Assembly (NCBI GenBank): GCA_009993045.1
Contig: JAACUG010000063.1
Location: 1-64,000 of the forward strand
DNA: 64,000 nt
Direction of reading: 5' to 3'
DNA from: Cyanobacteria bacterium CG_2015-22_32_23
GTDB taxonomy: Bacteria; Cyanobacteriota; Cyanobacteriia; Cyanobacteriales; Cyanobacteriaceae
Part shown: piece after piece, positions 10,734-54,535 of the stretch
How positions within the stretch are numbered: position 1 is the first letter of the stretch
How the letters are laid out: every line of letters begins with the position of its first letter
The notes under the pieces: model-generated
The model's input: only the letters and a program-made list of their open reading frames with translations
Told to the model about the DNA's origin: nothing
Databases searched by the model: none
Program-made: the position numbers and the translations under genes

Positions 10734-12668
10734 ATGATACTTACCAAACAAAAAATTATCTCTTATTTATTAGTTTTTCTTTTTACTTTGTTTGTAGTAT
10801 TACCCGTCAAAGCACAAATTCCTTTTTTCCCTGCACCTGAAACATTAGATGCTTTTCCTGAAACACCTACATGGGATTTGAATAAAGCTGAAACTTGTGG
10901 AAGATTTTTATGTAGTAGCGTTTTTTTCTTTTCTGATTTAGATTTTAGGAGAGAAAGGATTATAGTTGCATTACCAAGAGATATAACAAAAAGTACCAGA
11001 GAAGTAGCCTTAGAAGTTGAACAAAGGGCGAGATTCATTCAAACTGTTTTCAGAGGTATTTTTAATAATATGCGTACTTTTATCATAAATAATCCTGTAG
11101 AGGAAAGAAAAAATCGTAATTTTTGGTTAATAACCAATGAAAAACCTTTACATCCAGCAACTCCCATTGTAGAAGTAGGAATCGAAAATAGTCAAACCGT
11201 TATCTATGTAACATTAAATCCGAAAATAGGATTAGTACAACAAGCAATTTTAACCATTACCGAAGCTGATGCTAGAGCAAATACAACTACTATTTCACAG
11301 TTAGCTCAAACATGGCGCAACAAAATTAGAGAATCTTTTAGTAACGCACTTTGGGGATTAGAAATGGATATACAAAGGCCATTTTTAAGAATAAACGTCC
11401 CTATTACAATAATAATAATCACATTTTCTTTGATAACTTTTATTAGAATTTTAAAAAAAATCTTAAAAAAATGGCACAGAAATTTACAAAAAGAATTTCA
11501 CGAAATTTATGAAACTTTAAAAGTTAATCCTGAAGAAAATTTCTCTCAAAATAATACTTCTAAAGAAGTTAAATCACAATCATATCAAAAAACTTCTAAG
11601 AATCTTAACTTAATCCAAAAAATATTTACCAGAGGAGTTAATGATACCAAAGAAGTGATTCAGGAAAGTTTATCTTTTTCAGCTAAGTTATTTCTCGTTG
11701 ATTTTAACCAAAGAAGAAATTTTATTAAGCAAAAAATGAACTTAATTGAATTAATTTCTAATCTTTTATTTCTCAATCAAATAACATTAATTTTGTTTTG
11801 TGTCGCAGTTATTTTAGTTACTTTTAGAGATACCCGTTTTCTCTTTAATTTATTTTTTACTCAAAGCATTTTACTGCCTTTAATTTGGATTGCAATGGTA
11901 TTAACAGATAAAATTATTGATTTCTGGATTGATAATTTATTAGATGATTGGGCAAAAGCAAAACAAGAAATTAACCCGAATTCTAACCGCCCCATTTTAC
12001 GAGTTAATACTTATTCTCCTGCTTTAAGAGGTGCGACAACCATTTTTTTTAATGTTATCGGCATTTTCCTAACCCTTGCTGTCATTGGTATTAGCCCAAG
12101 TATTCTTGCTAGTGCTGGGGCTTTAGCGGTGGTGTTTGCTTTTTTATCTCGTAATCTTTTTGACGATATGCTCAATGGTATCTTAATTTTAATCACGGAT
12201 CGTTATGCTTTAGGGGATGTCATCGAAATTAATGGTTTTATGGGATGTGTAGAAACCATGAATCTTTATATAACCGCATTACGCAACTTAGATGGGCAGT
12301 TAATTATCATTCCTAACGGCAAAATTTCCACTGTGGTTAATATGACAAAAAATTGGTCTCAAGTTAACTTTACCATTGAAGTGGCGTGGAATTCTGAACT
12401 TCAAAAAACCATGAGTATCTTACAAGAAGTAGCCGATCAGATGTATCAAGAAAAAGACTGGAAAGATAAAATGATTACCTCTGCGGATATTTTAGGTATC
12501 GAAAAAATCGCTCATGATGGAATTACCATTCGATTAATTATTAAAACACAACCTTCAGAACAATGGCGAGTAGGTAGAGAATTTCGTTGGCGAGTAAAAA
12601 AGGCTTTTGATAAGGCTGGAATTTCTTTAGGTATTCCTCAAACAGTTATTTGGCATAAAGATAATTAA
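10734..12668 (+). CDS. MscS-family mechanosensitive channel
   Basis: 644 residues. A signal peptide (about 1-27, ending VKAQ) precedes a periplasmic domain (about 28-210). Membrane segments follow near 213-235, 345-385 and 430-500, and the last of these runs into the MscS pore and beta domain (FLSRNLFDDMLNGILIL, DRYALGDVIEI, LRNLDGQLIIIPNG). The C-terminal alpha/beta region is complete. It should release osmolytes on hypo-osmotic shock. The long N-terminal extension is seen in several cyanobacterial relatives and may sense an extracytoplasmic cue. Single gene. Confidence 0.9.
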   Translation: MILTKQKIISYLLVFLFTLFVVLPVKAQIPFFPAPETLDAFPETPTWDLNKAETCGRFLCSSVFFFSDLDFRRERIIVALPRDITKSTREVALEVEQRARFIQTVFRGIFNNMRTFIINNPVEERKNRNFWLITNEKPLHPATPIVEVGIENSQTVIYVTLNPKIGLVQQAILTITEADARANTTTISQLAQTWRNKIRESFSNALWGLEMDIQRPFLRINVPITIIIITFSLITFIRILKKILKKWHRNLQKEFHEIYETLKVNPEENFSQNNTSKEVKSQSYQKTSKNLNLIQKIFTRGVNDTKEVIQESLSFSAKLFLVDFNQRRNFIKQKMNLIELISNLLFLNQITLILFCVAVILVTFRDTRFLFNLFFTQSILLPLIWIAMVLTDKIIDFWIDNLLDDWAKAKQEINPNSNRPILRVNTYSPALRGATTIFFNVIGIFLTLAVIGISPSILASAGALAVVFAFLSRNLFDDMLNGILILITDRYALGDVIEINGFMGCVETMNLYITALRNLDGQLIIIPNGKISTVVNMTKNWSQVNFTIEVAWNSELQKTMSILQEVADQMYQEKDWKDKMITSADILGIEKIAHDGITIRLIIKTQPSEQWRVGREFRWRVKKAFDKAGISLGIPQTVIWHKDN

Positions 12669-52217: not shown

Positions 52218-52372
52218 CCCTGTTTTTATTAATAAATCATCACAACATAATGAATCAATCTTATAGCAATGTGTTGATGTCTGATCAGATTTCTCTATAA
52301 AAGATTCTGATACCATTGTAAATTTTCTATAATCAAACTAGATTTTAGATTTTAGGTTTCAAATAATTAGTT

Positions 52373-52418
52373 TATAGAACCCATTTGGTATCTACTAAAT
52401 GTAAGTTATAATATTATC
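52373..52418 (+). repeat. 46-bp perfect inverted repeat, left copy
   Basis: Begins TATAGAACCCATTTGG and ends TAATATTATC. It matches the reverse complement of 54490-54535 at all 46 positions. The match ends cleanly on both sides apart from a TAA one base further in. Confidence 0.95.
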
Positions 52419-52421
52419 TTA

Positions 52422-52440
52422 AATAATGATAATCATCATA
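52422..52440. promoter_or_regulatory. Fur-box-like site
   Basis: AATAATGATAATCATCATA agrees with the classical 19-bp Fur box at 16 of 19 positions. It lies 3 bp inside the left inverted repeat, 140 bp before the DJ-1 pseudogene and about 205 bp before the divergent ndhF start. Confidence 0.5.
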
Positions 52441-52579
52441 AATGACATATTCTAGTAGCCATTGGTTTTAAATTAGTAAACCAACGGGATAATAAACCTA
52501 ATGACATTACACCTCAGCACTCAAGAAAATAGAGATGACAGAGTTACAATGAGAACAAGTACAAGCAGAAAAAAATATA

Positions 52580-52823
52580 ATGAGTAATAAAATACTTATC
52601 GTTCTAACCAGTGTTGAAAAGTATCCCAATTTGAATCGAGCTACTGGTTTGTGGCTAGGGGAAGCAGTTCACTTTGTCAAAAAAGTAGAAGAAGCAGGTT
52701 ATGAAGTTGATTACGTCAGCCCCAAAGGAGGATATACACCGATTGATCCCCACAGTCTTGCAATGGCAGAACCCAGCATCTGGTGAAGCCGTCGCTAATT
52801 TACTGATTACCTCCTTAAAATAG
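52580..52823 (+). pseudogene. DJ-1/PfpI-family gene with internal deletion
   Basis: Codons 1-64 encode the N-terminus of a DJ-1/PfpI-like protein (KILIVLTSVEKYPNLNRATG, then GYEVDYVSPKGG and DPHSLAMAEP). The frame then stops after two codons. In another frame, QNPASGEAVANLLITSLK and a stop at 52821-52823 are the exact C-terminus expected of the same family. The middle, including the nucleophile Cys and catalytic His, is missing. Both frames share CAGAACCC at the junction (52767-52774), which suggests a deletion between short direct repeats. Non-functional as an amidotransferase or glyoxalase. Confidence 0.85.
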
Positions 52824-53060
52824 TGCAACGCTATTGTTCAGGGTAGTGGAGGATAAAACTGAGAAATAAACTTAGTAGCTGACGAGTATTCTTCTGCTGT
52901 CTTAGTATTAATATACTGGTGAGAATCTTCTATAAATTTTATGTGTTTATATATTTTATTCATCCTATAAATTAACTATTCGATACCGTCAGCAAATAAT
53001 CGAGATAATGACGATTATACTTCTTATAGCCTTTTTTCTTACGAATAACCAAGAGAATAA

Positions 53061-53219
53061 TTAATTATCACATTTAATTACATTATTAATCAAACGACAA
53101 TTTTTCCCTTTTAAATCACATCTAACTATACCGTTAATTACAGGACAATCAGTTGTATTTTGGGCTATAGATACATTCTTGAGATTCAATGCCATCAACA
53201 AAATTAATTCGGAAATCAT
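53061..53219 (-). CDS. Candidate small secreted Cys peptide
   Basis: 52 residues. A hydrophobic start (MISELILLMAL...SIAQ) resembling a signal peptide is followed by a mature part with two copies of C-x-x-I-N-x-(I/V)-(V/I)-(R/K)-C-D: CPVINGIVRCD and CRLINNVIKCD. The DNA of the two units differs mostly in ways that keep residue type, as expected of a selected coding duplication. Against it: no charged n-region and only a weak ribosome binding site. No family recognised. The flanking DNA (52824-53060 and 53220-53321) shows no other gene. Confidence 0.4.
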   Translation of the reverse strand: MISELILLMALNLKNVSIAQNTTDCPVINGIVRCDLKGKNCRLINNVIKCDN

Positions 53220-53321
53220 AAGCTGTCATTAATTACATAACAATAATATTGTATCATAACTATTCTTATAAAATTCGTAAGAAAAAAGCCCTAAAATAGA
53301 AACAGAGTTAGGGTGAATATA

Positions 53322-53579
53322 ATGAGCAGATATAGTAAAGATTGGAAAGAAATATCGATAGAAGTCAAAAAGAAAGCCCATTGGAAGTGTAATAAATGTG
53401 GTGCAGACTTTAAGGATAAATCAAGGAAAGGTAACTGTCTGCAAGTGCATCATTGGAATAGAATACCAGAAGATAACAGACCAGAGAATTTAGTAGCTTT
53501 ATGCAATAGCTGTCATTTACAATATCATCAGGGCAGAAAAGGTAATATTTCCCTCAATCAATTATCCCTTAATTTATGA
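53322..53579 (+). CDS. HNH endonuclease-like protein
   Basis: 85 residues. Zinc pairs C23-x2-C26 and C61-x2-C64 frame the HNH core VHHWNRIPEDNRPENLVALC with H43/H44, N56 and H65. Small stand-alone HNH proteins nick or cut DNA. The ATG at 53322 follows AGGG by nine bases, so the in-frame GTG at 53313 is rejected. CCCTAA...TTAGGG (53289-53294, 53308-53313) forms a hairpin over the ribosome binding site. It overlaps the next gene by 4 bp. Inside the inverted-repeat segment. Confidence 0.85.
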   Translation: MSRYSKDWKEISIEVKKKAHWKCNKCGADFKDKSRKGNCLQVHHWNRIPEDNRPENLVALCNSCHLQYHQGRKGNISLNQLSLNL

Positions 53580-54349
53580 TAAAGATGTCGTCTATTATCA
53601 GTAAAATACAAAAACAGAGAGTTAGTGACGGGAAAACTATCCCAATTTTTTCTGGTTGTGATTCATCTAGTTATACTTTAATTCTTGTTCTATCGAACCT
53701 CGGTGATTTTGATAGTCTTGAATATGTTTGGTGGTTAAAGAAGGAAACAGATTTACTTAAAACTAAAAATATAGCAGTGAAAGCGATCGCCATTGGGAAT
53801 AGAGAATCAGGGAAAAAGTTTTGTCAATATACAAGATTTTCCGAAGAAAATTTATTCATTGATTCTAATGCAGAACTTCATCAAGAATTAAGATTATATC
53901 AAGGTTTAAATTGGAATTTAGCTTTTTTTTCAGCGACACAAAATGCTTGGTTAAATCTATTATTAATGTGTGCGGGAATTGGTAGTAAAGGCACTTTGAA
54001 AGAGGTTTTGCGAGGTTATATAGGAGATAAAAATGCACCATCTCTATTTAAAGAAAATGAATCAATCAATATTAAACCTTTACCGATGATTAAAGGCTCA
54101 TTGTTTAACATAGCAGGAAAAAATTATCAACGTCCTTTTGAATTGGCAACACTACGTCTTCAGAATATGGTTGAGGTTTTAAAAAATTGGCAAACTTATG
54201 TACCAAATGACAAATATTTGACTCAAAGAGGGGGAACTTTTCTTTTTAACAAAGAAGGAGAATTAATTTATGAATATCGAGATAAAGGAATATTAGGATT
54301 TGCCGAAAATATGAGTAATCCTCTGACATTTTTAAAAACATTAACATAA
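53576..54349 (+). CDS. AhpC/TSA-type peroxiredoxin-like protein
   Basis: 257 residues (or 254 from the ATG at 53585). IFSGCDSSSYTLILVLSNLG, FDSLEYVWWLKKE, AIAIGNRESGKKFCQYTRF and a C-terminal RGGTFLFNKEGELIYEYRDK match the thioredoxin-fold AhpC/TSA-like family of cyanobacteria. C28 is at the head of the fold; the usual CxxC is not present, so redox activity is uncertain. The start overlaps the HNH stop codon (ATGA), so translation is probably coupled. Confidence 0.75.
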   Translation: MIKMSSIISKIQKQRVSDGKTIPIFSGCDSSSYTLILVLSNLGDFDSLEYVWWLKKETDLLKTKNIAVKAIAIGNRESGKKFCQYTRFSEENLFIDSNAELHQELRLYQGLNWNLAFFSATQNAWLNLLLMCAGIGSKGTLKEVLRGYIGDKNAPSLFKENESINIKPLPMIKGSLFNIAGKNYQRPFELATLRLQNMVEVLKNWQTYVPNDKYLTQRGGTFLFNKEGELIYEYRDKGILGFAENMSNPLTFLKTLT

Positions 54350-54372
54350 TTAGATAACACAACAGAGAAATT

Positions 54373-54513
54373 ATGAGTAACAATCAAAGTTTTGAAGAAA
54401 AATATCCTAACCTTAGGGATTTTGTTTATTATCAAGGAAAAATAGAAATCGGTTATAACCAGAACATTAACTCTTTTGTCTTTGCTTATGATAATATTAT
54501 AACTTACATTTAG
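54373..54513 (+). pseudogene. Conserved hypothetical gene truncated by the right inverted repeat
   Basis: 46 codons: EEKYPNLRDFVYYQGKIEIG, then a NSFVFAYDN-like end, resembles the start of a small cyanobacterial protein family (pattern YPNL..WV..G.IEIG....SFI.A.D.GG). The last seven codons lie in the 46-bp inverted repeat (from 54490), which supplies the stop. The remainder of the gene is not seen beyond the repeat. Confidence 0.55.
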
Positions 54514-54535
54514 TAGATACCAAATGGGTTCTATA
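54490..54535 (-). repeat. 46-bp perfect inverted repeat, right copy
   Basis: Reverse complement of 52373-52418 at all 46 positions; 2071 bp separate the copies. It interrupts the small gene at 54373. Confidence 0.95.

What the first reader, a model, noticed from the sequence alone, without database searches (positions are those of the whole stretch)
52373..54535. 2.16-kb segment bounded by a perfect 46-bp inverted repeat
The repeats match at 46 of 46 positions with non-matching flanks. The right copy interrupts a gene. Inside are an HNH protein overlapping a peroxiredoxin-like gene, a decayed DJ-1 gene, a Fur-like site and a possible tiny peptide. No transposase is inside. Options: ends of a non-autonomous mobile element, two insertions of a MITE in opposite orientation, or an invertible segment (HNH could nick the repeats).
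Basis: partly seen in the sequence, partly recalled or inferred. Interest (0 to 1): 0.7.

Follow-up and report, generated by a model that had tools for sequence, protein, structure and literature searches.

The report
Two dead insertion-sequence ends facing outward
The perfect 46-bp inverted repeat is two leftover copies of the same end of a dead, ordinary IS5-family jumping gene, bracketing a patchwork of decayed gene pieces in a Geminocystis-like cyanobacterium; it is not a new mobile or switchable element.

Summary
In detail: 52373-52418 and 54490-54535 match at 46/46 positions in inverted orientation, far beyond chance, and the right copy truncates a gene. The interpretation changes. Both arms are the left (5') end of one IS5-family insertion sequence (two ORFs: PF13340, then DDE_Tnp_1; NCBIfam IS5_3; TA target). 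That IS has a true terminal repeat of only 21 bp. The left arm runs on for 86 bp and still carries the first codons of the transposase (ATG ACA TAT TCT AGT AG). It then joins an antisense Abi_2 fragment through a 9-bp microhomology. The right arm stops at 46 bp, where it joins a truncated gene through GAT. So '46 bp' is where a deletion happened to end, not a functional terminal repeat. Between the arms lie deletion-fused scraps plus two genes under purifying selection: a stand-alone HNH gene and the genome's only copy of a Prx-like gene. Homologues of all these parts sit elsewhere in relatives, without the repeats. No intact transposase of this group is held in the genome. Best reading: the fossil of two identical ISs in inverted orientation, probably from one local event, later gutted by microhomology deletions. 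It is ordinary. Present-day inversion is untested.

The parts
52340..52372 (+). Outer left flank: AT-rich intergenic stretch upstream of the ndhF-like gene, itself resembling dispersed repeats; ends in TT, with TA as the first bases of the arm
   Evidence: query 1-39 matches other contigs of the own genome and many places in G015
52373..52458 (+). Left arm: first 86 bp of an IS5-family IS (21-bp TIR including the TA target, leader, first codons of orfA: ATG ACA TAT TCT AGT AG at 52442-52458)
   Evidence: gapped alignment to the G004 IS remnant, which continues into the transposase reading frame
52450..52510 (-). Abi_2 gene fragment (antisense), joined to the IS end by a 9-bp overlap TTCTAGTAG
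   Evidence: 58 of 61 bases identical to Cyanobacterium aponinum plasmid pCYAN10605.01
52506..52556 (+). Fragment of a 117-aa plasmid ORF (contains ATG...MTELQ, the 'tiny peptide'), joined to the Abi_2 fragment by a 5-bp overlap ATTAC
52563..52823 (+). DJ-1/PfpI pseudogene: 5' part to 52774 fused to the last codons from 52765 through a 10-bp overlap, middle deleted
   Evidence: intact in a Planktothrix agardhii plasmid and in G013
52850..52964 (-). Decayed fragment, 71% identical to the start of a 124-aa ORF on a second replicon of G006
53322..53579 (+). Stand-alone HNH endonuclease gene, 85 aa, intact; dN/dS 0.10-0.38 against relatives
53576..54349 (+). Peroxiredoxin-like gene (AhpC-TSA_2), 257 aa, intact, only copy in the genome; dN/dS 0.26-0.34; in relatives at other loci
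54374..54492 (+). OrfY, 5' half of a 79-aa gene that is intact in G002 and G008
54490..54535 (-). Right arm: first 46 bp of the same IS left end, opposite orientation, joined to OrfY through GAT

Best explanation
The two arms are truncated copies of the left end of one IS5-family, IS427-like insertion sequence, inserted in opposite orientation at TA sites with their outer ends pointing away from each other. Two near-identical IS copies once bracketed this stretch. They most likely arose together, either by intramolecular replicative transposition (which leaves an inverted IS pair) or as the two ISs of a composite unit; this step is inferred and I give it about 0.6. Later deletions at short microhomologies removed the bodies of both ISs and fused the remaining ends to an Abi_2 fragment (left) and to codon ~40 of OrfY (right); the junctions show this. 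The same process cut the DJ-1 gene and other scraps. The HNH and Prx-like genes are ordinary genes that survived. The structure now does nothing specific: no intact transposase of this group is held in the genome. The confidence below is for the arms being remnants of two copies of the same IS left end.
For: The 21-bp TIR TATAGAACCCATTTGGTATCT is shared by both ends of a ~0.9-kb IS present in many copies in G006. That IS encodes orfA (PF13340) and a frame-shifted orfB (DDE_Tnp_1); the joined protein passes NCBIfam IS5_3 at 171 bits against a cut-off of 110. Its left and right ends diverge after 21 bp, yet our two arms agree for 46, and the left arm runs on into the orfA start codons as a G004 remnant does, so both arms are left ends. 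Junction overlaps are 9, 5, 10 and 3 bp. This left-end sequence occurs nowhere else in the genome, although other TIR-like ends do; two random points would fall this close with probability 0.0013, which favours one local event. Only transposase fragments remain in the genome.
Against: The local-event step rests on a draft assembly (142 contigs), in which other IS copies may be missing or collapsed, and on only two survivors. No empty site or pre-insertion state was found: the flanking ndhF and ABC genes are neighbours in none of the genus genomes examined. The target duplication is only TA, which every such end carries, so it cannot tell one composite unit from two separate insertions.
Confidence: 0.85

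Rival explanations
1. Two independent insertions of the same IS (not MITEs) happened to land in opposite orientation 2.1 kb apart and were both truncated later. This shares the identity of the arms with the best explanation and differs only in how the pair arose.
For: Relatives carry scattered ends of this IS group; the TA target gives no signature of a joint event; gene order here is scrambled in the genus.
Against: The own genome holds this left-end sequence only at these two spots, and two random positions would be this close with probability about 0.0013.
Confidence: 0.3
2. Ends of a live non-autonomous element: the 46-bp repeats serve as terminal repeats and the 2.16 kb is cargo moved by a transposase in trans.
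For: TA at both outer ends; outer 21 bp are a perfect TIR; an inverted pair of left ends could in principle be cut out as a unit.
Against: No second copy of the unit in own or related genomes; contents are the genome's only Prx-like gene and decayed scraps whose homologues lie at unrelated loci; no intact transposase of the group held; arms differ in length, 86 and 46 bp.
Confidence: 0.05
3. Invertible segment: the repeats recombine and flip the 2.1-kb stretch, aided by the HNH protein.
For: 46 bp of perfect inverted identity could support rare RecA-type recombination (general knowledge).
Against: HNH homologues in G001, G002, G004, G008 and C. aponinum sit without any such repeat; no recombinase inside; the repeat is explained as IS remnants. 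No reads could be examined.
Confidence: 0.03

Closest known systems
IS5 family, IS427 group (two overlapping ORFs, mostly 2-bp target duplication, IRs of roughly 13-21 bp; PMC3281130)
   Same: Relatives' full copies: ~0.9 kb, two frames (PF13340 then DDE_Tnp_1), 21-bp TIR, TA at the ends
   Different: In the window only 86 and 46 bp of the left end remain, and no working transposase
Composite transposon with inverted IS copies, such as Tn10 or Tn5 (general knowledge)
   Same: Two copies of one IS end, inverted, like ends outward, around a gene-bearing segment
   Different: ISs are gutted; no empty site, no second copy, target duplication only TA; membership not shown
IS-derived MITEs
   Same: Same TIR; MITE-like pairs about 112-125 bp apart exist on other contigs of this genome (C84, C33, C96)
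   Different: The window arms have no second TIR nearby, and the left one keeps the full-length IS leader plus transposase start codons

Membership tests
IS5 family (IS427-like group) | Transposase of the IS5 family encoded by the parent element | tested here: met
   Full copies in G006: NCBIfam NF033580 171 bits, cut-off 110; PF13340 and PF01609. In the window only the first codons remain
IS5 family (IS427-like group) | Terminal inverted repeat of the family present at the window arms | tested here: met
   21-bp TIR matches with 0 mismatches at both arms
IS5 family (IS427-like group) | 2-bp target duplication (TA) | tested here: inconclusive
   TA at both outer ends and at the ends of full copies in G006, but no empty site to prove duplication
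Composite transposon | Unit found inserted as a whole: empty site or second location | tested here: inconclusive
   No second copy; the neighbouring genes ndhF and ABC are apart in the relatives examined, so no empty site can be read
Non-autonomous element / MITE | Both ends of one element (left and right TIR) on a short internal sequence, in several copies | tested here: not met
   Both arms are left ends, truncated at 86 and 46 bp; single occurrence
Invertible DNA segment | Site-specific invertase encoded with the segment | tested here: not met
   No recombinase among the ORFs or family matches inside
Invertible DNA segment | Both orientations seen in one population | not testable with these tools
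   No reads and no second strain of the species were held

The most novel reading that the evidence does not exclude
The paired left ends still form a mobilisable or invertible unit that moves or flips the HNH-Prx gene pair when an IS5 transposase (or RecA) acts in trans, altering Prx expression.
Probability: 0.03. Interest if true: 0.45.

Novelty: new member of a known kind. Interest (0 to 1): 0.17.

Why it matters
It shows how a striking perfect inverted repeat in raw sequence can come from two truncated copies of one IS end, with its length set by deletion junctions rather than function. It also gives a clean example of microhomology deletions wearing down an IS pair and captured genes in a cyanobacterial genome with scrambled gene order. 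As a mechanism it is ordinary.

Tried and rejected
MITE pair: rejected because both arms are left ends and the left one keeps transposase codons. HNH as partner of the repeats: rejected; HNH homologues elsewhere lack the repeat. Empty-site search through the flanking genes: gave nothing, because ndhF, Prx and ABC are far apart in the relatives. Exact 29-mer in viral contigs: no match. Plasmid records: homologues of single pieces, never of the segment as a whole. The one genome-contig scan, with the HNH protein: only distant Laspinema loci. Fur-like site: not clearly above chance.

Full report
Observation. The two 46-mers at 52373-52418 and 54490-54535 are exact reverse complements. At the window's 31% G+C about 1e-16 such pairs are expected by chance in 64 kb. 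The outer 29 bases occur only at these two places in the genome, even with three mismatches.

What the arms are. A blastn search of relatives with the left arm found its outer part at many places in G006, in inverted pairs about 0.9 kb apart. The DNA between is an insertion sequence with two reading frames: first PF13340, then DDE_Tnp_1. Read together they pass NCBIfam's IS5-family model. Its two ends share 21 bp, TATAGAACCCATTTGGTATCT, and differ beyond. Copies carry TA at their ends. Two overlapping frames with a frameshift, a 2-bp duplication in most members and terminal repeats of roughly 13-21 bp are listed for the IS427 group of IS5 in PMC3281130. The window's left arm aligns for 86 bp to a remnant in G004, where the reading frame of orfA continues. 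In the window it stops after ATG ACA TAT TCT AGT AG, at 52458. The right arm is the first 46 bp of this same left end. So the inverted repeat is two copies of one IS end, not the left and right end of one element, and its length is an accident of where the right copy was cut.

Junctions. I aligned each piece to an intact relative. The IS end (to 52458) overlaps an antisense Abi_2 fragment (from 52450) by 9 bp. The Abi_2 fragment (to 52510) overlaps a fragment of a 117-aa ORF (from 52506) by 5 bp; both match neighbouring genes of the C. aponinum plasmid pCYAN10605.01, with about 640 bp missing between. The DJ-1 gene has its start (to 52774) and its end (from 52765) fused over 10 bp, with about 440 bp lost; an intact gene is on a Planktothrix plasmid. 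OrfY (to 54492) overlaps the right IS arm (from 54490) by GAT. Overlaps of this kind are typical of microhomology deletion scars (general knowledge), and they explain the uneven arms. Three other junctions (117-aa ORF to DJ-1, HNH to Prx, Prx to OrfY) show no overlap, so not every join is of this type. A 3-bp overlap alone would be weak evidence; the 9- and 10-bp ones carry the argument.

The genes between. HNH homologues lie in G001, G002, G004, G008 and G011 at other loci, none with the repeat. In G002 (Geminocystis sp. NIES-3709 plasmid pGM3709_07) and G008 the order is HNH, methyltransferase, OrfY, HU-like protein. Here the methyltransferase, absent from the own genome at E 1e-20, is replaced by the Prx-like gene, which in G001 and G004 lies at other loci without HNH or OrfY. 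The Prx-like gene is the only copy in the genome and is under purifying selection, dN/dS 0.26-0.34, as is the HNH gene, 0.10-0.38. So the segment holds resident genes rather than spare cargo.

How it arose. Shown: both arms are IS left ends; the IS bodies are gone; the arm junctions carry microhomology. Inferred: two near-identical ISs in inverted orientation, left ends outward. A member of the IS427 group formed co-integrates, a sign of replicative transposition (PMC3281130); within one molecule that process can leave an inverted IS pair (general knowledge). One local event is favoured because the genome has this left end only here and two random positions would lie this close with probability about 0.0013. 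Separate insertions cannot be excluded: the assembly is a draft, and no empty site can be read because ndhF, Prx and ABC are scattered in the relatives.

Present state. Only fragments of this transposase group are held in the genome, so I expect no transposition. Rare inversion by homologous recombination over 46 bp is possible in principle, and nothing here tests it.

Verdict. Observation confirmed, interpretation partly right (mobile-element ends), mechanism ordinary.

Noticed in passing
window 53322-54492; L121, L122, L124, L125: The stand-alone HNH gene is followed by a different gene in different genomes: methyltransferase (G002, G008, G011), a 109-aa ORF (G011 second copy), Prx-like (window). 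In the window the swap is almost exactly at the gene boundaries, between HNH and OrfY. Both G011 copies lie beside arrays that look like CRISPR repeats.
   Followed up: partly
G000 contigs C84:31196, C33:5457-5579, C96:~11960-12083 (L038, L039, L040): MITE-like pairs of the same IS5 TIR, about 112-125 bp apart, elsewhere in the own genome.
   Followed up: partly
L082 (G004) 5926: A TIR-like IS5 end (2 mismatches) lies about 25 bp upstream of the Prx-like gene at its separate locus in G004, so IS activity may touch this gene in two genomes.
   Followed up: no
window 53031-53046 and 53273-53288: A perfect 16-bp inverted repeat 226 nt apart just upstream of the HNH gene; the right copy is conserved in front of HNH in G008.
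   Followed up: partly
window 52340-52378: AT-rich stretch AGATTTTAGATTTTAGG... with similar copies on C123, C23 and C57 of the own genome and many in G015: a dispersed intergenic repeat.
   Followed up: no
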